Position numbers and translations under genes: made by a program. From Lepidurus packardi (taxonomy: Eukaryota > Arthropoda > Branchiopoda > Notostraca > Triopsidae), in assembly GCA_023053545.1 (NCBI GenBank), contig JAKZAN010000004.1, positions 10,354,001 to 10,418,000 of the forward strand: DNA of 64,000 nt, in the 5' to 3' direction. Of the stretch, positions 1 through 35,769 are shown piece after piece. Below the pieces are notes generated by a model. The model saw only the letters and a program-made list of their open reading frames with translations, did not search any database and was not told the DNA's origin. How positions within the stretch are numbered: position 1 is the stretch's first letter; each line of letters begins with the position of its first letter.

Positions 1-3000
1 CGTCTTGAAAACTGACGGGTTTGTCTACGTTGCTCTCCGGCTCTGGTTCGGGATCACTGATACTATTCAACTCATCAATCTGATTGACGTAACTCTTGCT
101 AAAGATTTCGCGCTGCCGATTAATCACATTTTGGAAAGGATGGCTGCCACTGCTGGTTTCGGAAACTGTGCGATTCCGACGCCGTACACATTCCTCTTCA
201 GGGGGTACATGATTACTCACATGCTCCGAGTTGCGCCGCCCGTTATGCCCGTACCTATACGGATGGCCTGGTCGGTTCCGCTCAGCGGTATTCAAATGAT
301 GTGTGTTTGGGCTTTCCAGTAATCCTTCGGCGGCTCTTTTTTCCCTGGCTCGCCTACGCTCGTTTTCCTTTTGGATATGGTTTAGCATAAAATCAATCTG
401 CAAGGGCGTAAAATGGAAATTCGAGAGGCGACGCCAGAGACTTTGTTCATTGACCAGTTTTTGGAACAGCGGAGACGCTTCAGACATGTTGGCTAAATCT
501 TTATCATCGGCCAAACGACGCAGGAGTTCTCGTATGCACTCGGGCGGGAGATCTTTTAATCCCATGCCTGACGCAGGACCCTAAGAGTACAATGATATAA
601 AACGAGTGCTTATAGAGGTTACCGGGTTTGGACTCGAGCTTCCCTTTTCGAATTAACTGACAATGAAAAACAACCCAACAATGAAAGAGAGCTCAATTTT
701 GCCTGTTTAATGCGTATAGGCGGTACTACGCTATTTACTGCTATTGTCCTGTGTAAGCCCACCAATGGGCTGGCAGTCAGCAGCTACAGTACCCAGTCAA
801 AATCGAACGTTTTTGGCGTCCTTAAAATATAGCATTGGTAATGCACGGGTAATGATGCCCGTGTTACCGATTTTGCCCTCCGTATACGACTAGCTACGCA
901 AACCGGAGTAACGCTACAAGTCCCGCATGCCGGACCTTGTGTTCCGGCTTCGCTCTTGCTGGCACTAACTTACATCTATGTTGATTTTCCAATTAACTGA
1001 CAATGAATTAACGTTTCGAATTAACTGACAATGAAAAGTAACCCAACAATGAAAGAGAGCTCAATTTTGCCTATTTACTGCGTGTAGGCGGTACTACGCT
1101 ATTTACTGCTACGGAAGCGAAAAACGTTCGAAATATGAGTCTCTGCAGCTAAAGCGTCCTATGTAAGCCCACCAATGGGCTGGCAGACAGCGAACGTTTT
1201 TGGCGTCCTTAAAATATAGCATTGGTAATGCACGGTAATGATGCCCGTGTTACCGATTTTGCCCTCCGTATACGACTAGCTACGCAAACCGGAGTAACGC
1301 TACAAGTCCCGCATGCCGGACCTTGTGTTCCGGCTTCGCTCTTGCTGGCACTAACTTACATCTATGTTGATTTTCCAATTAACTGACAATGAATTAACGT
1401 TTCGAATTAACTGACAATGAAAAGCAACCCAACAATGAAAGAGAGCTCAATTTTGCCTATTTACTGCGTGTAGGCGGTACTACGCTATTTACTGCTACGG
1501 AAGCGAAAAACGTTCGAAATATGAGTCTCTGCAGCTAAAGCGTCCTGTGTAAGCCCACCAATGGGCTGGCAGACAGCGAACGTTTTTGGCGTCCTTAAAA
1601 TATAGCATTGGTAATGCACGGTAATGATGCCCGTGTTACCGATTTTGCCCTCCGTATACGACTAGCTACGCAAACCGGAGTAACGCTACAAGTCCCGCAT
1701 GCCGGACCTTGTGTTCCGGCTTCGCTCTTGCTGGCACTAACTTACATCTATGTTGATATTCGAATTAACTGACAATGAATTAACGTTTCGAATTAACTGA
1801 CAATGAAAAACAACCCAACAATGAAAGAGAGCTCAATTTTGCCTATTTACAGCGTATAGGCGGTACTACGCTATTTACTGCTACGGAAGCGAAAAACGTT
1901 CGAAATATGAGTCTCTGCAGCTAAAGCGTCATGTGTAAGCCCACCAATGGGCTGGCAGTCAGCAGCTACAGTATCCAGTCAAAATCGAACGTTTTTGGCG
2001 TCCTTAAAATATAGCATTGGTAATGCACGGGTAATGATGCCCGTGTTACCGATTTTGTCCTCCGTATACGACTAGCTACGCAAACCGGAGTAACGCTACA
2101 AGTCCCGCATGCCGGACCTTGTGTTCCGGCTTCGCTCTTGCTGGCACTAACTTACATCTATGTTGATTTTCCAATTAACTGACAATGAATTAACGTTTCG
2201 AATTAACTGACAATGAAAAGCAACCCAACAATGAAAGAGAGCTCAATTTTGCCTATTTACTGCGTGTAGGCGGTACTACGCTATTTACTGCTACGGAAGC
2301 GAAAAACGTTCGAAATATGAGTCTCTGCAGCTAAAGCGTCCTGTGTAAGCCCACCAATGGGCTGGCAGTCAGCAGCTACAGTATCCAGTCAAAATCGAAC
2401 GTTTTTGGCGTCCTTAAAATATAGCATTGGTAATGCACGGGTAATGATGCCCGTGTTACCGATTTTGTCCTCCGTATACGACTAGCTACGCAAACCGGAG
2501 TAACGCTACAAGTCCCGCATGCCGGACCTTGTGTTCCGGCTTCGCTCTTGCTGGCACTAACTTACATCTATGTTGATTTTCCAATTAACTGACAATGAAT
2601 TAACGTTTCGAATTAACTGACAATGAAAAGCAACCCAACAATGAAAGAGAGCTCAATTTTGCCTATTTACAGCGTATAGGCGGTACTACGCTATTTACTG
2701 CTACGGAAGCGAAAAACGTTCGAAATATGAGTCTCTGCAGCTAAAGCGTCCTGTGTAAGCCCACCAATGGGCTGGAAGTCAGCAGCTACAGTACCCAGTC
2801 AAAATCGAACGTTTTTGGCGTCCTTAAAATATAGCATTGGAATGCACGGGTAATGCCGCCCGTGTTACCGATTTTGCCCTCCGTATACGACTAGCTATGC
2901 AAACCGGAGTAACGCTACAAGTCCCGCATGCCGGACCTTATGTTCCGGCTTCTCTCTTGCTGGCACTAACTTACATCTATGTTGATAGTCGAGGCAATTG

Positions 3001-3450
3001 CGCTGATCCGGTCAATAGTCTGGACGTGCTGACCCCATAATTGGGATGAACCGAGGATTTGTCCCCACCACGCCTCATCTCGCAAGGTCTGATGGAGCTC
3101 CGCCAGGAGCGTCTTTAAGATTTGGGTGTTTTGCTGGTTGCCTTGCACTAAAAAGACGATAAAAAAGCCCCAAAATAGATGGAATGTTTTTTAGAAATAA
3201 CAGTTTGTGAAGGGGAACCAACCTTGCAAAGCAACTTCTTCAAGCACAGCTAAAAGGCGCTTTTGGGCATTTCCGGAAAGAGTTACAATCCGCTGTTGGG
3301 ATAACAACAAACCCAGCAATTTGGCGATGTACTGGAACCGGCGGGTATCGCGTACCGCGTTCCGGAAATCCAAACGCTGTAAAGCGTCGCTGAATCCGTT
3401 AAAGCCAGCAATCTTTATTAAGGTTTTAAATACACTTTTAAAACTTTAGA
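1..3450 (-). CDS. FBXO32/FBXO25-like: F-box protein, FBXO25/FBXO32 (atrogin-1)-like, partial
   Basis: F-box proteins of this family are substrate adaptors of SCF ubiquitin ligases. Three minus-strand exons are visible: about 3223-3412 (5' boundary uncertain; open up to about 3450), 2975-3147 and 1-580. The splice phases agree: G|TG between the first two, and phase 0 between GAT|GTAAGT at 2975 and CTCTTAG|GGT at 580. The first exon reads LQRLDFRNAVRDTRRFQYIA and then SLSG-like TLSGNAQKRLLAVLEE, matching the family's RLDF..A..D.RRF.Y..RLLEL....LSG.AQK block. The second continues with a QQN...LL..L segment. The third contains the F-box, MGLKDLPPECIRELLRRL...LW..L..FHF. After the F-box comes an Arg/Asn/Glu-rich stretch that runs off the left edge and is longer than in vertebrate members. 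The N-terminal exons were not found. Family assignment is recognition from memory; FBXO25 and FBXO32 cannot be told apart here. Confidence 0.88.
646..2986. repeat. Tandem array, six units of 386-410 bp, inside the F-box gene intron
   Basis: The intron 581-2974 is almost wholly a tandem array. Landmarks recur with regular spacing. The GTTGAT end of each unit falls at 985, 1371, 1757, 2167, 2577 and 2986, giving steps of 386, 386, 410, 410 and 409. The 24 bp length difference is an indel in the segment after GGGCTGGCAG. The leftmost unit lacks an internal block beginning ACGGAAGCGAAAAACG. Units are nearly identical, which implies recent expansion or homogenisation. Each unit contains, on the minus strand, ATCAACATAGATGTAAGT, which is the gene's real exon end plus 5' splice site; the rightmost copy is the exon junction itself. 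Confidence 0.95.
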
Positions 3451-6400
3451 CGAAATTACGCCTTGGCTTTACTTGATTACCTCGCGAGTACACTTGAGCG
3501 TTATATGACAATAGGGTGGCACGGGTGATTCATTTTCTAAAGAACACAAAATACAAAAAGAAAATTACTTAAACATGTAACTTAATTTTTTCTATTTATA
3601 ATGTAATTTTTTTTATTACAATATATACATAGGGGGTTAACTCGCTTACCTTTGTCAACGCTCGACGTTCCTTTTGTCAGCGACCCGGATTCCATTTTAT
3701 TAGCTGACTCATCGTAGCCGCAATGACGTTTCTCGTGCTGTACTGGCACGTTTTGCCTAAATAATAATAATAAAAAAAGAAACAGGATTCCATTGAATCG
3801 TATGGAACGTTCCAGACCTGTACGAAATTCTCATTTAAATTGGACCCCAGGTTTGACATTAAGTGCACTTTTATAGCTATGTTTCCGCCCTTCATTTTCC
3901 CACGTGGATAGGCCTGCTATAAACTATAATTGCGTTAAATTGCGGTCAGCAAGGAAATTGAAAGATTTCTATCGATTCCGGCACAGTGGCAGCTGGCGCA
4001 ACAGTGAATCTTTCCTGCACTTTCCCTTGTTTTGTGGTTTTGGGAAACTTTCCAAAAAGCCCCTTCGCAATTAGGCAAGCGCCAATTTTAGGCCAGAAAG
4101 TTGCGTAATTTTCTTTTTTTTTTGATATGATGTTATTCTGTATGCTACTTTTCGTTCGTTTTTTATATTTAAAGTTGACTCCCGCTTCTGCAACGCAAAA
4201 AGCAGTTCCTGGATTGGCCTTCCAAGGGCACGTACTAATAGACCCTTCGACTTGGACGCTAACTCGGAAATCAACTCTTGTTCACGTGCAAGCTGCAAGA
4301 CTTTTTCATTGAGTTTTTTTTTTTCTTAAGCTTAATACGATTTTCAGGTTGGGTATAGTTAGAATAACTTAAACAAATAGGGTAAGCGACTAAATAAACT
4401 CCGCAGTACCCCGGGTTCACTTGCCCAATACTAAATGAACTTGCAACTAATATAAACGTATAAATAAATACAATAAATTAATATATAAAACAAAGTAATA
4501 AATAAAATAAACTTGCACTAATTAAACTGCGCAGTACCCGGGTACACTTGTCTAGTACAGTACAGCGCCTTTCTTAATTACTCCCCTTAATTAAGGAAAT
4601 TACAGGCCACTTTCTTCTTATTATCTTATTCAAAAATTGACTAACCCTATCAGTATTATCTCGATTACCGGGAAAAAGGGGCCTCGTTTATCTTTTTATC
4701 TTTCTTTTCTTAATACAAATGACTTTACACCTGGCTACCTTTGCCGTGCCTTTGCCTTATTCGACGGCTGCTAATGCAAATGACTTGAAACAATCCAACC
4801 TGTAACGGCTAGATAACGTACACGAAGCTGCAATGCGTTTTGAATGTGGCTCATCCAAGTCAATCGTCATCCCAAAATGGAATAAAAAAAACATGGTGCA
4901 CCTGATCGTGTAAGAGCACGTCGCAATAACCACGCTGTTGGCACAACCCCAGCGTTTATTTTTATGCAAGTTAAAAAGTTGAGTAACGCAACACTGCGAA
5001 TCAACGACGTACGGGCGACGTTGGCTTCCAAGGAAAACAAAGGGCGGTTTATAGAGTACGAAAGAAGTGAAGGCGTTCTTTTGAATAGGTTTATTTGTTT
5101 ATCTTATGTAAGATCTCATCAGCAAACAACGCTAGAGTACTGGCCAATTTCAAAACAAACTAACCGATTACAAAGTAATAAGGCTTACTTACGGGCTGGA
5201 TTTGTAGTGCGAGGCGCAGTCCGACCATCGTCTGCGACACTCGAGGATTTTTTTCATTTCCCAGCCTTCGTCTGTCTTGACCCATTCTTCACCCGGTGAT
5301 CGCCAATCTTTTGAGTAGAATGGCATTTTTTGTGTATATTAAGCTCACGCACTTACAGTTTACACACGGAATTAAAGTAAGATTAGGCCGCTCTTTCTTT
5401 GTTCTATGTGGTAAATCCCGAGCGAAGTTTACCTTCCACGACTGCTTGAAGGAAAAGCTCTCCTTTGTCTGAAAGGGAATGTAGCTGCGCAGTCACAACA
5501 TCAGCCCTTTGGCATGGCTTTGTTGTGTTTCCATCGTCATGGGATCATTCTGACGTACTTGGTGTTAATGAGATACGATTTCTACTTCATTTTCTTGTCC
5601 TAGATGGCGTAGCGTATTTTGAAAACTTGAAGCGGTAAACCATGGGATCATTCTGACGTGGGATCATTCTGACCATGGGATCATTCTAGTAAGTTTTCTA
5701 GTAAGACTAGTACGCGTATCATATTTCAAAAAGTTTAAACTAAAACGATTTCCTAGTAAGTTGTTTATGTCTAGGGTGCGTTTTATTGTGAACGGAACTG
5801 ACTAACTGCGTTGGCGAGTTGGCTCGACTGGCATTTTCGCGTGGACGGGGATCAGCTGTACGGTCGTAGCGTGAACAACTCCAAGTGGATGGCTTGCCGC
5901 GCAGTTCGAAAACCGCCTTCCACTCAAAGTGCATAGCAGAACTCGGGACGATCACCAAAGCACGCCCCTAAGTTTGACGGGCGTTTTACTGTCAAAGCTC
6001 GTTCAGCCAGTTGAACAGCGACCTGCAGAATGAGCTGTCCAACGAAAAGAACTGGCGAACGGATCAATTGATAGTAGAATGCCCCCCGAGATGGCGCTCT
6101 GAACGAAACTTTAAACTAAAAATTATTTTCTAGTAAGTCTTCTTAAGCCTAGATGGCGTGTCGGATTAAAAATGGGACTTTTTCCGTCTTCTATAGCGCG
6201 AAAGAAACACGTGGTCCGTGTTTGGGAGAGTGGGCTTCCTTAGAAGAAGCATCAATTATTCACAATCAAGGAGTACAATTATCAAGCTAGGCTAGCTTGG
6301 CTACTCTAGCTAGAAATATCTAAACAGCCATGAAGAAGAAATGTTGAAGCCTGTGCTCGTGAAGGTAGCAATTTACCTTCTCTTGAAAACAAGTTATTAT

Positions 6401-8631: not shown

Positions 8632-9290
8632 TCCCGTATCCCTTAGCTCAGTGTAGCCGGTTAGCATGGGAAGGCTCCCGTATGCCTTAGCTTGGTATAG
8701 GCGGCTAGCATGGAAAGGCTCCCGTATACCTTAGCTTGGTATAGCGGTTAGCGTGGGAAGACTCCCGTATACCTTAGTTTGGCAGAGGCGGTTAGTACGG
8801 GGAATTTCGGAACAACTTTTCGTTAACACCAGTACATTTCAGGAAAAAATTCTTTGTCAATAAGCTTGAGCATAGTATCAGCAAGTGCACAATCAATCCA
8901 CCTTTCTTTCCAATGAATAATAAGTTAGTAACATGTAAAAAAAAGTTTGCAACAATGTGAAATACGCTGCCTAAAAATATGTCCTTTGATTGTGCACTAG
9001 CTGCTAAAAAGAAGAAAATCTATGTTTTTAAATTGCTTTCAAACCTGACAAGTTTGCCGTTCCGAGAAATCTTGTTCCGAAAGTTCGACCACTTGATTCG
9101 AGACATTGTGCTGCTACAGCAAACTGTGGTGACAAGTTGTACTTTCCATAAGCAAAAACAAGAGTACAAACTTTGCCGGCAATTAGCTAATTAGTTTCGT
9201 TTCTTTTTTTTTGCTTTCTTACAAAACAATAAGATACACGAGCGCCATCTGTGAATGTTTCGTATCAATAAGCTAAGGCATACGGGAGCC
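8632..9290. mobile_element. Small nonautonomous element with 21 bp perfect inverted ends and an internal tandem array
   Basis: GGCTCCCGTATGCCTTAGCTT at 8673-8693 is perfectly inverted at 9270-9290. The left end carries four tandem units of 43-45 bp (8632-8805), each with TCCCGTAT..CTTAGCT..G...GCGGTTAGC. A second, inner inverted pair (AGTGCACAATCAA near 8884, TTGATTGTGCACT near 8986) lies inside. There is no coding capacity beyond a 71-codon ORF. A half-match to the end sequence occurs at about 26109. The structure suggests a MITE-like element; no target-site duplication was assigned. Confidence 0.65.
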
Positions 9291-10744: not shown

Positions 10745-11303
10745 CTTGTGATTCTATAAAGAAATGCCAGTAATTGGAGGGGTTTAATTTGAGATTTGAA
10801 TCGAGTGGATTTACCGGGACGTCGACATAAGGACGACTCGACAGAAGAATTACGGTGCACCCGACTTAAGGACTACAACCCCGAACCTTGTCCTGACCTA
10901 ACCTAACTTAAGTTCCTTAAGTCGGGGTTCGTAGTCCTTATGTCGAGGTTTGTAGTCCTTAAGTCGGGAGCACCGTAGTTGTTTTTGTCAAGTCGTCCTT
11001 ATGTCGCGTTGCCGGTTTCCCTCTATGATTCTGTGAAGAAGTGTCAGTAATTGGAGGGTTTTAATTTGAAATTTGAATCGAGTGGATTTACCGGGACGTC
11101 GACATAAGGACGACTCGACAGAAGAATTACGGTGCACCCGACTTAAGGACTACAAACCCCGAACCTTGTCCTGACCTAACCTAACTTAAGTTCTTTAAGT
11201 CGGGGTTCGTAGTCCTTATGTCGAGGTTTGTAGTCCTTAAGTCGGGTGCACCGTAGTTGTTTTGTCAAGTCGTCCTTATGTTGCGTTACCGATTTCCCTC
11301 CCT
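10745..11303. repeat. Tandemly duplicated foldback element with telomere-like core
   Basis: Two adjacent copies (about 10745-11028 and 11029-11303), each made of about 70 bp of flank plus a foldback. The left arm has CGACATAAGGACGACTCGAC...CACCCGACTTAAGGACTAC, and the right arm has the inverse, GTAGTCCTTAAGTCGGG...GTCCTTATG. The centre is CCTGACCTAACCTAACTTAAG. Because the flank is duplicated with the element, segmental duplication explains the pair better than two insertions. Related copies lie at 38190-38371 and 46490-46800. Confidence 0.8.
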
Positions 11304-13551: not shown

Positions 13552-13811
13552 CTTAAAACAGTAAACTTAACTCTCTGCTCCCGGGTAAGTCATTGCATAT
13601 TGAGTTTTTATTTCTTATTTTTCAGATTTGAATGTCAATAGAAATATTTCCAGACAATTCGAAAAGCTGTCAGAAAGTTTTCTTAAAACAGTAAACTTAA
13701 CTCTCTGCTCTCGGGTAAGTCATTGCATATTGAGTTTTCATTATTTGTTTTTCATATTTGAATATCAGTAGAAATATTTCCAAACAATTGGAAGAGCTGT
13801 CAGAAAGTTTT
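13552..13811. repeat. 130 bp tandem duplication containing an intron-like segment
   Basis: Units 13552-13681 and 13682-13811 are about 90% identical by eye. Each runs from CTTAAAACAGTAAACTTAAC through CGGGTAAGT to a T-rich tract and then GCTGTCAGAAAGTTTTC. The first unit has TTATTTTTCAG after GGGTAAGT, so it looks like a 5' and 3' splice-site pair about 40 bp apart; the second unit has TTTTTCAT at the acceptor position. Confidence 0.75.
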
Positions 13812-16424
13812 CGGGCTAAACCCTGTGTAAACTAATTTACCATTAGTCGCGAGCTTGTCATGTTTGTCGTGTATTAGTGTTAGATCTGCGTTTCATTTAC
13901 GTAAAGTGTGAAGTTGTAGCAAAGCAAGTTTTTGGTATTGTTGGGGTAAGGTTTTGAACTCGAGCGAAGGTGGGTGAGTTAGAAAAAGTTCACCGGAGTC
14001 GTCGCTCATTTGGCCTTACAACTTCCGCTGTGATCCTGCTGAATTGACGTCATACTTTGGCAACCGGTTATCATTAGCAGAAAAGGAGGGGGAAAGCCGA
14101 GATTCCGGGCTTAAGACCACGCTTATCTGCAGCGGGAGTATAACGAGCGTCTCATTAATTAGAAGCAAAAGGTAAAAGGGTAGGTTTAAAGACAGCAGGA
14201 ACACAAAAGCGAAGAACACCACTACTATAGTTCATAAAATAAAAAAAAATGAAAAATAATGATATAGAAGTCTAGAAAAAAAGGAATAGTGAAATTTTTT
14301 AAGAATACTAATTGAGAAGATCCCTCTCTTCCCCCCCAAAAAAGGAAAAGAAAAGAAAATGTCTTATTATGATCTCATTTGAAGCGAAACCTGGACTTTT
14401 TTTTAAGGAATCGTTAAGCTTTTGAGGTCTCATTAACCTGCTGGGCAAATTAATGTAAAGCGTAAAATGAAAGCGAAACTTCAGCTATGCGGGGTTGCAG
14501 AATTTCATTTGCCATCTACTGGCTAACGAGAGTTACAGCACGTGCAGGAGAGTAGAGTCGGGAGACAGATTCATAGAGAATAACATAAGAGAAGCCGAGC
14601 GCACGCTTCACCTCCAATTGAGCTTCCGCCTCGCTTTAATTGCTTTGCGGGGGTTAGAATCCCCCAGCGTAAAAGACATAATGTATGCCCTGACAAGCCG
14701 TGACAAAAACCCAAGGAGCGAAAGCGAAGGCTCCGTCTATTCTTTTCCTTTAGCTCCTTCGCGCTCTTGGAGACTGCAAACAAGCTTTGCATCTTCCAAT
14801 CCTATTTTTCCTTCTTTTCTTTTTAGAGACCCATTTCCAATTTCTTTCAACATTTTTTGTGGGTGCTGTCTCGCAACATGGATGTGGAAACCATGCATGG
14901 GCTTTTTCATTTTTCTTTTCCTTTTCTCAAGCTACGACACCAAGCAATTGTGTATTCCCCAGAAAAATAGGAAAGGAATTCGTACTTTTCTCTCTGTTTT
15001 CTTTTAGTTTTGTCCTCGATAAAAACAACTCCGCTCTTGACGAATGATAGATACGCTTCCAAAGGAAAAGCATAGCTGAGTAGAATCATACGCTTCTTGA
15101 AGATTATTGTTTTCGCGTTTCGCGTTTCAGGAATCGAAGTTTCGATGTTGACATCAACCTGGAGAATCCGCTGGATTGTTTACGACAAGTAATATTTTTG
15201 GACAGACCGCCTAGAAATGTCGCAGAATGCTCATGTGACAACTTGACAACCAGTATATCACTCCATATGTCGTCTATACGAGCATATAAAGCGTATTACT
15301 AGCGCTTGTGCAACTAATCCGCGCACCGCTAATGGAAAACAAGCCTCCATTCCACCAGCTTTGCATTTCTGCAGTGTAATTAGTATGAGAGTAATATAGA
15401 AAAATATAAACTATAGAAATAAAAATAAAGTACAATTTATAACAGTTAAAAATATTACATTGAATGACTGATTTCTTACTTCTGAAATATTATGGTTTAG
15501 TATAATATATCTTGTGATGTACTATTTTAGAAAATAATCTGATGTCAATGATTTTATAAATACCATTAATGTTTGATCTTTTATTTTGTTTTATGATGTT
15601 TATTATATTTATTTTATAATTGATTTTGATTTTATATTGATTTTATAAATATCATGAATATGGAAATAAACGAATAATAGTCCCTATAGGTTTCGTCGAA
15701 ACTTTTTTAAAGAGACTCTTTTTCTGTCACGGCACAAAGGATCGGTTATGCAGTTCATTGTGGCATGTTGTTGTTATCCCTACTGAGTAAACATGTAGTT
15801 ACACGTCCTGGACACTACACGGTCTCTCTGTTAAGGAGTTAAGCAGCTTTCACGGTTTCGCGGCGCTTGACTGCCACTGCCGGCCCACTCTGCTCTGTTT
15901 TCGTCCTCTTGCATCCAAATCTTCTTCTTCCCATGAAAGAAAAATAAAAGGGGGTATATAGAGACGTTGGAAGGGGTGTTTGCATAAGTGGCAAGAAGTG
16001 TACTTGGCTTGCTCGGCACGTCGGTTTGGAGCATCCCATCGACCGACCTCCGTTATAAAACAACAATGGCTCGGGCTGCTCCCCAGGAAAGACACACATT
16101 TACAATAGCGTTCTATACGACATTTCCCCCCCTGTTTTCTGTTTTTATTTTTTTTCACTCCCATCATTCTGGCAGCCGTGCTGAGTATGTAGACAGTGTA
16201 AGAGCTAAACACATATCTATTATTCCTGTAGCTTTCATCCGGTACTCCAGTACACGTTGAAGCACTTACTTGTGACAACGTCCGGTTGGGCGGAATTAAA
16301 GAAAAAATCCAAATGGAGTGTTCTACAGACGCTTCGAGTTTCGACCGTCCCAGCGTAGCCGATCTTGTTCATTATGTACGAAAAAAAATGCGGTACAGTA
16401 TAGTACAGTACAGTACTATTCCAT

Positions 16425-16815
16425 CCCAAATAGAGGCCACCGGCAATTTTCCAGAAGGTCAGGCGGGAACTCGTAGCGTTACTACGGCTTGCTCTTACCG
16501 GTAACACAGCATTACAATAATGAATACTGAAATGTAACAGTTGAACAATGTTGCTCCTAACCGGGCCCCATCCAGCTTCTCCGGCTTGATGTTGCCTTGA
16601 TCGGTAACTTCTTTTCGGAACGATTCTGTGTTCTGTACGAAAAGGAGTCTAGAAAGCGAAGTAACAACCAAGCCGGAATACCACGACGAGTGCGCGGTTC
16701 GAAGCACAAATTTGTTCGGTAACTGTTTACTATTCGCTATTGATCTTTCTTGCTCCAATAACAGGCAGGCCGAACTAACGCTACGAGTCCCGGCCTGACC
16801 TTCTGTACTTCTATG
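16425..16815. mobile_element. MITE-like inverted-repeat element, copy 1
   Basis: The left end has ATAGAGGCCACCGGCAATTT followed by GGTCAGGCGGGAACTCGTAGCGTT. The right end has the inverse, AACGCTACGAGTCCCGGCCTGACC. The interior shares GCTCCTAACCGG.CCC.(G)TCCAGCT.CTCCGGCTTGATGTTGCCTT with the copy at 21285-21712. No transposase is present. Confidence 0.8.
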
Positions 16816-21284: not shown

Positions 21285-21712
21285 CAGTCCAGTGCTATTC
21301 CATCGCAAATAGAGGCTACCGGCAATCTTCCATAAGGTCAGGCGCGAACTCGTAGCGTTGCTACGGCTTGCCCTTACCAATAGCACGGTGACGCAATAAT
21401 TAATAATGAAATATAACGGTTAAAAATTGTGCTCCTAACCGGACCCTGTCCAGCTGCTCCGGCTTGATGTTGCCTTAATCGGTAACTTCTTTTCGGGACG
21501 ACTCTATGTTCTATCTGAATAGAATAGAGCTAAATAACAACGAAGTCTTAGTATCACGATGAGTCCCGGCTTGTAACAAAAATTTGTTCGGTCAACTGTT
21601 AACTATTCGTTATTGCATATTTTGCTCCATTAGCAAGCAGGCCGACCTAACGCGACGAGTTCGGCCTGACCTTATGGAAAACGTCGGTAGCTTCTATTTG
21701 GAAGGGAATGGT
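21285..21712. mobile_element. MITE-like inverted-repeat element, copy 2
   Basis: Same family as 16425-16815. The ends CTATTCCATCGCAAATAGAG...ACC and CGGTAGCTTCTATTTGGAAG are imperfect inverted repeats of about 27 bp, followed inward by GGTCAGGCGCGAACTCGTAG and its inverse. The interior is about 350 bp. Confidence 0.8.
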
Positions 21713-21955
21713 GCAAATAATCTCTGATTCCTTTTTTTCGCTCCAGGACGATTCTATATTCTATCCTAAAAGGAGACTAGAGAACAAAGTAACACCAAGC
21801 CGGACTATCACGGTTTGAAGCAAAAATTTGTTCGGTCAACTATTAACTTATTCCGTCTTGCTTTTTTGTGTTCCATCAATAAGCAGGCCGAACTAACGCT
21901 ATGAGTCCCGGCCTGACCTTATGGAAACTTCGGTAGCTTCTATTTAGGAAGGAAG
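21713..21955. mobile_element. MITE-like inverted-repeat element, partial copy 3
   Basis: Directly abuts copy 2. It repeats the interior and right end (GGACGATTCTATATTCTATC to GGTAGCTTCTATTTAGGAAGG) but lacks the left arm, so it is a truncated tandem copy. Confidence 0.7.
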
Positions 21956-34621: not shown

Positions 34622-35769
34622 TCAAGTAATTTCGATCTCATTTGCTTTTGAATGCGTGGAAACCAAGGTACACGGTTCTTTGGCCAGCCATTTACGAAGA
34701 TTGCCAGGGTGTGGCAACAAGAAGCGCTTCTGCCAATCCAAGTATGATTTCTTGCCGGTCAGATATAAGGCCACTGCCGTGTCTCGATCGGTGGGGGAAT
34801 ACCTTCGACGCGTGGGGTGAATATTTGCGTTGTTGACCGCACATTTGAGAAGGCTCACTGTTTCGGCTGGTAGATAATTAGCCAATACTTCCAAGGCATA
34901 TTCTTTAGTGACAGGGGGTGGAATCTTGTTAGCTGCCTTAAGCCTAACAACTTTGGCTCTACAGGTGGCAAGTTGGCCTTGCAGACATCTGGCTTTTCGA
35001 CGCGCTTGTCTCAATTTCTTGACCGTTTGAACGCATTTTCTTGTACACCGCGAAGTGTCTTTCGGACTTCCATCTCCTATTTTTTTCTTTGGCAAAGTCT
35101 GCTCGCCAATCAAACCAGTGTCGGTGATTGGTGGGGGCAGGGCATACGAGTGGTCAATCGGATTCTGAGGTATCACATAAATGTCCGAATCTGACTCCAA
35201 GTTGTAATCATCTTCGTCAAAAGTAGAAACGTGATCGCGCAACGCAGGAATAGTTGCGGACCTAGCACGTATTACGGCTTCAACTTCATACTCCGCAGCT
35301 AGCGTGAGATCTTCTTTCAGATTCACAATTGTGGAAATGTTGCTGTAATCGTCATAATTAAAACCTAAGGACCATGTTATATTATTTGACATATTCATTA
35401 AGGTAGCTAGGACGTAATACCATTCTTCAATTGGTAACGCGTAACAAACGGGAGTGCATTGCTGGATATTCTTCTTTTGAGCAAGTCTGCCGGGTTAAAG
35501 TGCATACTGCACACCCTGTACGAGTTATGACGCTGCTGCTTTGTTTTTTTGAGCAAATCTAATCGGTCGATACGTCTGGCCCACTCCTCTGACCTGAAAT
35601 TAGAGACAATGTACTTAACCTCCACTATTATTATAGTTTTTGAAGTTATTTACCTGTCATCCATAGGGAATTTGAAAAATCGAAGCGGTTTATTAGCTGA
35701 CGTGTTGGTACATTTGTGTACGGCGCAACGGTACGAATATTTTCCTACAACGCCAGTTGGTACTGCCAT
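34622..35769 (-). CDS. THAP-domain, P-element-transposase-like protein, truncated, one frame break
   Basis: THAP domains are zinc-coordinating DNA-binding modules shared by P-element transposases and their domesticated relatives. Exon 1 (35769-35654) has C-X4-C (CAVHKC) and FKFP. A 60 nt intron ends TTTCAG. Exon 2 (from 35593) has the invariant Trp in SEEWARRI, then CSMHF (the second zinc pair) and NALPFV at the AVPTIF-box position, so the C2CH module is complete. That frame stops at 35407. A 258-codon ORF then runs 35398-34622, one frame over and open through the junction. It has an acidic stretch, a basic Cys-containing coiled-coil-like segment (CTRKC...RQARRKARCL) and a helix-turn-helix-like block YSPTDRDTAVALYLTGKK...LPHPGNLRKWL typical of P-element/THAP9-type transposases. 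No RNase-H-like DDE domain follows. A single indel near 35410-35440 would join both parts. It could be domesticated, decaying or mis-assembled. Confidence 0.85.

What the first reader, a model, noticed from the sequence alone, without database searches (positions are those of the whole stretch)
581..2986. Intron-filling tandem array in which every unit copies the host gene's 5' splice site
The F-box gene intron (581-2974) consists of six near-identical 386-410 bp units. Each ends with the 18 bp that, at the rightmost copy, is the exon end plus donor (ATCAACATAGAT|GTAAGT on the minus strand). The gene therefore offers six identical donors in a row, five of them intronic. Transcription runs from right to left, so the functional donor is the first met and the decoys follow. 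Either the array arose by duplication that included the exon edge, or an element inserted at the splice site. Copy number could affect splicing.
Basis: partly seen in the sequence, partly recalled or inferred. Interest (0 to 1): 0.75.

Follow-up and report, generated by a model that had tools for sequence, protein, structure and literature searches.

The report
Intron multiplied with its splice donor
In a crustacean-like animal's F-box gene, one intron together with the last dozen bases of the exon before it has been copied about five extra times in a row, leaving a chain of identical splice starts that may form small in-frame extra exons; this looks like a known kind of duplication taken unusually far, and RNA data are needed to see what it does.

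Summary
The minus-strand FBXO25/32 (atrogin-like) gene has a 2,394-nt intron (2974-581) filled by a tandem array: five full units (386-410 bp) and one truncated unit. The 18-mer ATCAACATAGAT|GTAAGT occurs six times exactly and was found nowhere else in the 108.6-Mb assembly with up to one mismatch. This supports duplication of an intron together with its exon edge (12-13 exonic nt, breakpoint at a TCGA microhomology), not an element ending in the 18-mer. The donor word is no better conserved than the rest of the unit, and unit variants suggest recombination between units. In every full unit the highest-scoring acceptor of the intron (on a rough, recalled matrix) lies 51 nt upstream of a copied donor, so each of the five intronic donors closes a 51-nt, phase-0, stop-free exon-like module. 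The intron can be read as one intron or as six introns with five mini-exons. Most likely the exon-adjacent donor is used and the array is removed whole; direct use of an intronic donor would read VS-stop before the F-box. Whether modules are spliced in was not testable (no RNA). It is a new variant of intron growth or gain by tandem duplication.

The parts
5193..5326 (-). First coding exon of the FBXO25/32 gene (MPFYSKDWRSPGEEWVKTDEGWE...)
   Evidence: its MPF start aligns with all 13 homologues placed in the alignment
3224..3412 (-). Internal exon (IAGFNGFSDALQRLDF...VALQ); exact upstream edge uncertain (acceptor scores only -0.6)
2975..3147 (-). Exon before the array, 173 nt, ends phase 0 at ..ATCAACATAGAT; its acceptor could instead be at 3141
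581..2974 (-). The 2,394-nt intron (GTAAGT...TTAG) that holds the array
2578..2986 (-). Unit U6 (409 bp), includes the exon edge and the exon-adjacent donor 2969-2974
2168..2577 (-). Unit U5 (410 bp), duplicated donor at 2560-2565
1758..2167 (-). Unit U4 (410 bp), duplicated donor at 2150-2155
1372..1757 (-). Unit U3 (386 bp), duplicated donor at 1740-1745; the U3/U4 junction keeps the least altered breakpoint (13 exonic nt, TTCGAATATC)
986..1371 (-). Unit U2 (386 bp), duplicated donor at 1354-1359
646..985 (-). Truncated unit U1 (42-bp deletion, first 28 bp of the unit missing), duplicated donor at 968-973
581..645 (-). Intron tail outside the array, with the acceptor that keeps the coding frame (..TCATTGTACTCTTAG|GGT)
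2566..2616 (-). Exon-like module 1: 51 nt, phase 0, open (LIRNVNSLSVNWKINID), preceded by TTTTCATTGTCAG and followed by GTAAGT
2156..2206 (-). Exon-like module 2, identical to module 1
1746..1796 (-). Exon-like module 3 (LIRNVNSLSVNSNINID)
1360..1410 (-). Exon-like module 4, identical to module 1
974..1024 (-). Exon-like module 5, identical to module 1
2..580 (-). Exon after the array, begins GPASGMGLKDLPPEC..., carries the F-box-like domain; the open frame runs on 176 bases beyond the window's left end

Best explanation
A local tandem duplication, not an inserted element. An ancestral intron of roughly 440 nt (an estimate), together with the last 12-13 nt of the upstream exon and its donor, was duplicated when the exon edge was joined to a point near the 3' end of the intron at a TCGA microhomology. 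Recombination between units (unequal crossing-over or conversion) then expanded and homogenised the array to five full copies plus one truncated copy. Shown: the array, the 12-13-nt exonic edge in every unit, uniqueness of the 18-mer in the assembly, a four-gamete conflict between units, and no second gene copy found. Inferred: the functional donor is the exon-adjacent one at 2974. It is first transcribed, defines the normal 173-nt exon, and fits the upstream preference reported for competing equal donors with a short upstream and a long downstream intron. The array is therefore mostly removed as one 2,394-nt intron. Direct use of any intronic donor from the upstream exon would retain GTA AGT TAG and stop before the F-box. 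Because each copied donor is paired with a good acceptor 51 nt upstream, the copies can also act as incipient in-frame mini-exons, spliced in rarely if at all.
For: 18-mer exact six times and not found elsewhere in 108.6 Mb with up to 1 mismatch. Intronic copies match the exon for only 12 nt (13 at one junction) upstream of the donor and then turn into sequence shared with the 3' end of the intron. The two outer parts of the unit hit only the array, 6 of 6 matches each at E<=1; the whole unit and its middle have one diverged relative, about 147 bp at 82%, two copies 28 kb away. Four-gamete conflict between unit variants in 2 of 10 pairs of characters tested; the two share one partner and lie 5 columns apart, so they may be one event. 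Edge units carry most private substitutions: U6 6 and U1 4 of 13 in all. Frame continuity with 13 homologues, 8 named arthropods and 5 unnamed. In-frame stop directly after the donor. The only protein matches at E<=1 in the assembly, 3 of 3, are this gene's own exons. Upstream preference for near-equal donors, heightened in class SL (short upstream, long downstream intron), in human data: PMC9225289, section 6 and passages.
Against: No RNA evidence for any junction. The splicing outcome is inferred from human data and minigenes. On my rough matrix the module acceptors score above the acceptor at 580, which speaks against the modules being fully silent. No relative without the array was available, so the single-copy ancestral state is inferred. 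The genome DNA search skips very common words and scores only the best candidates, so its absences are not proof.
Confidence: 0.72

Rival explanations
1. Intron multiplication in progress: the modules are real cassette mini-exons. The region is spliced at least partly as six introns (358, 359, 359, 335, 335, 393 nt) with up to five 51-nt in-frame exons, adding 17 residues per exon to the variable linker before the F-box.
For: The best-scoring acceptors of the intron lie exactly 51 nt upstream of all five intronic donors; modules are phase 0 and open in 5 of 5 copies; these acceptors score 7.87-8.49, against 6.26 and 6.63 for the gene's acceptors at 580 and 3147. Control: of 50 other GTRAGT words in the window (both strands), 8 have an acceptor this good 25-150 nt upstream and 0 make a phase-0 open module; at the lower threshold 6.26 the numbers are 22 and 1. 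The linker at this position varies in length among homologues. A potato gene gained an intron by a duplication crossing an intron-exon boundary (PMC4974935).
Against: The five copies stem from one event, so the coincidence counts once, and the threshold was chosen after seeing it; the bare chance of frame and openness is 1/3 x 0.456. Five other sites in the array (TTCCGTAG, 7.45) also outscore the acceptors at 580 and 3147, and the gene's acceptor at 3536 (8.44) scores like the modules while that at 3412 scores -0.6, so the matrix separates poorly. No constraint: 2 variable columns in 51, both changing amino acids, against 16 variable ungapped columns in the whole unit. None of the 13 aligned homologues shows a similar peptide.
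Confidence: 0.18
2. A mobile element carrying its own splice-donor-like end (introner-like) inserted at the splice site and then amplified in tandem.
For: The unit holds a 24-bp motif akin to the inverted termini of a dispersed transposon-like family and 22-nt inverted arms, 81 nt apart in U4-U6.
Against: The 18-mer was not found elsewhere in the assembly; its exonic 12 nt are in-frame coding sequence; the terminus-like motif ends 41 bp from the donor word; pattern TGTGTAAGCCCACC hits only this array (5 of 7) and one paired repeat 28 kb away (2 of 7).
Confidence: 0.03
3. The extra donors are a regulatory device: use of intronic donors yields stop-containing, decay-prone transcripts, or the donors hold U1 snRNP on the nascent RNA, tuning FBXO25/32 output with copy number.
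For: The six donors are the only GTRAG words in the intron and all are followed in frame by TAG; the first such stop lies about 400 nt before the nearest intronic donor.
Against: No sign that the donor word is held more constant than its surroundings. The intron has no AATAAA and one ATTAAA, though nine AGTAAA, so there is little sign of strong polyadenylation signals to guard against.
Confidence: 0.05
4. Assembly error: the number of units is inflated or collapsed.
For: Near-identical units are a classic source of misassembly; no read depth was available.
Against: Units differ in length and in substitutions, and both edge units carry private changes; U3 and U5, however, have no private substitution.
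Confidence: 0.04

Closest known systems
[quoted passage not shown] abstract and section 5 read)
   Same: Local tandem duplication that carries an exon edge and intron with native splice signals; a new exon-intron structure arises from inherited signals
   Different: Potato: two copies, the 3' side (acceptor plus start of next exon), the new intron shown by RNA-seq. Here: the 5' side (exon end plus donor) with nearly the whole intron, six donors, no RNA proof
Novel intron positions by tandem duplication of proto-splice sites in Drosophila (PMC2891723; passages read)
   Same: Duplication as source of splice sites
   Different: There a coding segment with a proto-splice site becomes an intron; here the duplicated segment is mostly intron and lies inside an existing intron
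Intronic minisatellites/VNTRs affecting splicing (e.g. TERT VNTR6-1, PMC11830802; search listing with start of abstract only)
   Same: Tandem array in an intron; copy number may vary
   Different: The unit is about ten times longer (38 bp there) and contains the host gene's own donor and exon edge
Competing identical donors in minigenes (PMC9225289; section 6 and passages read; it cites Reed and Maniatis)
   Same: Several equal-strength donors compete for one acceptor
   Different: Engineered pairs there; a natural row of six here
Tandem alternative-exon arrays (Dscam, myosin heavy chain; recalled, no call)
   Same: Row of similar in-frame exon-like modules
   Different: Those are copies of a true coding exon; here only 12-13 nt of each module come from an exon

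Membership tests
Tandem genomic duplication including a splice junction | Direct repeats that include exon edge plus splice site | tested here: met
Tandem genomic duplication including a splice junction | Local origin, sequence not found elsewhere in the genome | tested here: met
   18-mer only in the array with up to 1 mismatch; outer parts of the unit found only in the array; the middle has one diverged relative 28 kb away. The search skips very common words
Intron gain by tandem duplication | New intron(s) removed from mature RNA | not testable with these tools
   No RNA reads
Intron gain by tandem duplication | Structure absent in sister species | not testable with these tools
   The own-genome search states that this genome has no relatives held
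Introner or other intron-generating transposable element | Many near-identical copies at unrelated genes | tested here: not met
Introner or other intron-generating transposable element | Element termini at the splice site | tested here: not met
   Terminus-like motif ends 41 bp from the donor word; the word at the splice site is host coding sequence. Target-site duplication was not tested
Tandem duplication of an alternative exon | Copies homologous to a coding exon | tested here: not met
   Only 12-13 nt of the exon copied
Intronic VNTR | Copy number varies among individuals | not testable with these tools
   One assembly only
FBXO25/32 (host gene) | N-terminal MPF..DWRSPG, central region, F-box, homologues of that name | tested here: met
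   PF12937 at 2.2e-06, 27.8 bits vs cut-off 24.3; 134 proteins at E<=0.001 of 6118 candidates, best named Daphnia pulicaria F-box only protein 25-like at 8.3e-84. No Pfam match for the three upstream exon pieces

The most novel reading that the evidence does not exclude
A natural case of intron multiplication caught in the act: duplicating an intron with 12-13 nt of the exon before it turns the join between copies into an exon-like module (native acceptor-like site, 51-nt open phase-0 body, native donor), so one intron can be spliced as six introns with five new 17-residue mini-exons whose number follows array copy number.
Probability: 0.18. Interest if true: 0.72.

Novelty: new variant of a known kind. 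Interest (0 to 1): 0.47.

Why it matters
Six donors with the same first 20 intron bases and the same last 12 exonic-type bases, but different longer upstream context, stand in a row in one native gene. That is a natural version of the minigene tests on how the spliceosome chooses among equal donors. If the 51-nt modules are used even rarely, the locus shows a simple route to new introns and exons at once: duplicate an intron plus a few exon bases. Copy-number variants, if they exist, would then give a natural dose series. If the modules are never used, the locus shows how well exon context protects a gene against five extra strong donors.

Tried and rejected
Element inserted at the splice site: rejected because the 18-mer was found only in the array and the outer parts of the unit hit nothing else.

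Special conservation of the donor word: rejected. 45% of 18-nt windows are invariant in U2-U6, and 40% over the 315 columns gapless in all six units. One search gave 36% for six units, but that alignment included the U1 tail that is not part of the array.

A nematode host was my first guess. The SL1 leader pattern gave 0 hits, and an SL1 family search was uninformative because its 14 controls also stayed silent. Protein hits then pointed to crustaceans.

A known RNA family in window 1-6000: 0 matches at gathering thresholds. PDB sequence search with one exon: one irrelevant hit at E 0.85. A protein search with the F-box exon alone: none of 144 candidates at E<=0.001; the joined exons worked.

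Papers: nine searches were answered. I saw no report of a six-fold tandem copy of a 5' splice site in their listings. That is a statement about those listings only, which show at most 20 papers each; subscription journals and preprints are largely not held.

Base rate of donor-containing arrays in this genome: planned with larger samples, not obtained. The control uses the 64-kb window only. The acceptor matrix uses generic frequencies recalled from memory, and its threshold was set after seeing the modules.

Full report
What is there. The window lies at C3:10354001-10418000 of a 108.6-Mb, 344-contig assembly. On the minus strand a gene runs from an ATG at 5326 past the window's left end. Its joined exons match F-box only protein 25/32 (atrogin-1 family): 134 proteins at E<=0.001, the best named being Daphnia pulicaria (52% identity), and the exon at 2-580 holds an F-box-like domain above Pfam's cut-off. 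A second gene in the window, a heparan sulfate 3-O-sulfotransferase, also has Daphnia proteins as its best named hits. The host is thus probably a branchiopod-like crustacean; the species is unknown. A protein search of the assembly found only this gene's own exons, 3 of 3 matches at E<=1.

The array. Between the exon ending at 2975 and the exon starting at 580 lies an intron of 2,394 nt. TRF gives one array at 804-2986, period 410, 5.5 copies. Five full units (U2 386, U3 386, U4 410, U5 410, U6 409 bp) and one truncated unit (U1) end in the same 18 bp, exact in 6 of 6. The leftmost copy was over-described: 581-645 is intron tail outside the array, and U1 has a 42-bp deletion and lacks the first 28 bp of the unit.

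Is the exon edge right? The reading frame is phase 0 on both sides..AIASTINID | GPASGMGLKDLPPEC... In an alignment with 13 homologues (8 named arthropods, 5 unnamed) the frame continues on both sides of a linker that varies in length. The junction falls inside that linker, so the alignment supports the frame but not the exact base. The donor is GAT|GTAAGT, the acceptor ATTGTACTCTTAG|GGT. The six GTAAGT words are the only GTRAG words in the intron.

How the array arose. Upstream of the donor, each intronic copy agrees with the exon for 12 nt (13 nt at the U3/U4 junction) and then becomes sequence that also occurs near the intron's 3' end. The U3/U4 junction reads TTAATTCGAATATCAACATAGAT. The exon reads CCTCGACTATCAACATAGAT and the intron's 3' end reads GTCAGTTAATTCGAAAAGG. 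The join thus sits at a shared TCGA. I infer duplication of nearly the whole ancestral intron (about 440 nt) with the exon edge. The 18-mer with up to one mismatch was found nowhere else in the assembly. Two outer parts of the unit (158 and 133 bp) hit only the array. The middle has one diverged relative (82% over about 147 bp), two tandem copies 28 kb to the left. The DNA search skips very common words and scores only the best candidates, so these counts are lower bounds.

Among U2-U6, four informative sites and the shared deletion give 10 pairs of characters; 2 pairs show all four combinations, columns 130 and 135 each against 337. The two columns lie close together, so this may be one event, but it is a sign that units have recombined. 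Private substitutions sit mostly in the edge units: U6 6, U1 4, U2 2, U4 1, U3 0, U5 0 over 315 columns gapless in all six. That is the pattern expected if the interior is homogenised more than the edges.

Is the donor word specially preserved? No. 45% of all 18-nt windows are invariant in U2-U6, and 40% over the 315 six-way columns. Its identity across copies follows from the young age or homogenisation of the array.

Scoring the AG sites of the intron with a rough acceptor matrix (generic frequencies recalled from memory), the best are TTTTCATTGTCAG at 2616, 2206, 1796, 1410, 1024 and 656 (7.87-8.49). Next come five sites at 7.45. The gene's own proposed acceptors score 8.44 (3536), 6.63 (3147), 6.26 (580) and -0.6 (3412), so the matrix separates poorly. 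Five of the six best sites lie exactly 51 nt upstream of the five intronic donors. The 51 nt are a multiple of three, in phase 0, and open in 5 of 5 (LIRNVNSLSVNWKINID in four copies, LIRNVNSLSVNSNINID in one). The chance of frame and openness alone is about 1/3 x 0.456. As a control, 50 other GTRAGT words in the window (both strands) were examined: 8 have an acceptor of at least 7.87 within 25-150 nt upstream and 0 give a phase-0 open module; at the lower threshold 6.26 the numbers are 22 and 1. About 2% of the AG sites outside the array (145 of 7,398) reach 7.87. The five copies are one ancestral event, the test was made after seeing the pattern, and the modules show no constraint: 2 of 51 columns vary, both changing the amino acid. 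The evidence for use is therefore weak, but the anatomy is real. Read this way, the intron could also be removed as six introns of 358, 359, 359, 335, 335 and 393 nt.

How it probably works. If an intronic donor is used directly from the upstream exon, the frame meets GTA AGT TAG at once, so the product lacks the F-box and should be prone to decay. In human data on competing donors of near-equal strength, the upstream donor is preferred where exon definition applies, and more so in class SL, defined as short upstream and long downstream intron with a limit of 250 nt (PMC9225289, section 6 and passages). That paper also reports a preference for smaller exons. Here the upstream intron is 76 nt, the downstream one 2,394 nt and the normal exon 173 nt, so the exon-adjacent donor should win. 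This is inference across phyla. The extra donors may matter mainly through the modules, where each has an acceptor-like site of its own. Nothing here measures RNA.

Place among known things. A potato gene gained an intron by a tandem duplication across an intron-exon boundary, with signals inherited from the parent intron (PMC4974935, abstract and section 5). Drosophila introns thought to be gained from duplicated proto-splice sites are another case (PMC2891723, passages). The present locus is on the other side of the intron, has six donors instead of two, and is not shown to be spliced in new ways. I call it a new variant of a known kind.

Noticed in passing
window 16450-16810, 21329-21676 and 21748-21923: Transposon-like elements with inverted termini (GGTCAGGC...CTCGTAGCGTT / AACGCTACGAGT...GCCTGACC). 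The search listed 30 matches genome-wide, itself and some inverted-terminus matches included, 25 of them 67-80% identical.
   Followed up: partly
window 899-915 and its repeats; loci L031-L037: Motif CAAACCGGAGTAACGCT inside every unit also occurs at 8 other sites on C1, C2, C3 and C5, at some of them as local clusters in both orientations; it resembles the termini of the family above.
   Followed up: partly
L010:2268-2695 (C3:10326268-10326695), 28 kb left of the window: Two tandem copies (264 bp apart) holding a diverged (82%) relative of the array's middle part: a second small tandem duplication of the same material.
   Followed up: partly
window 1882-1903 and 1985-2006, and the same places in other units: 22-nt inverted arms TACGGAAGCGAAAAACGTTCGA / TCGAACGTTTTTGGCGTCCTTA, 81 nt apart in U4-U6; similar arms can be read in the L010 relative.
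   Followed up: no
window 10749-11300, 8632-8795, 13552-13812: Other tandem repeats (277 bp x2, 44 bp x3.8, 130 bp x2) in the same window; relation to genes not examined.
   Followed up: no
window 34625-35494 (-): Open frame with a marginal P-element-transposase-like HTH match (PF12017, 23.1 bits vs cut-off 23).
   Followed up: no
window 580 to 1 (-) and 176 bases beyond: The exon after the array has a long stretch after the F-box; rows P0121-P0126 of the alignment also have a long insert there, while P0130, P0133, P0146, P0159 and P0187 do not.
   Followed up: no
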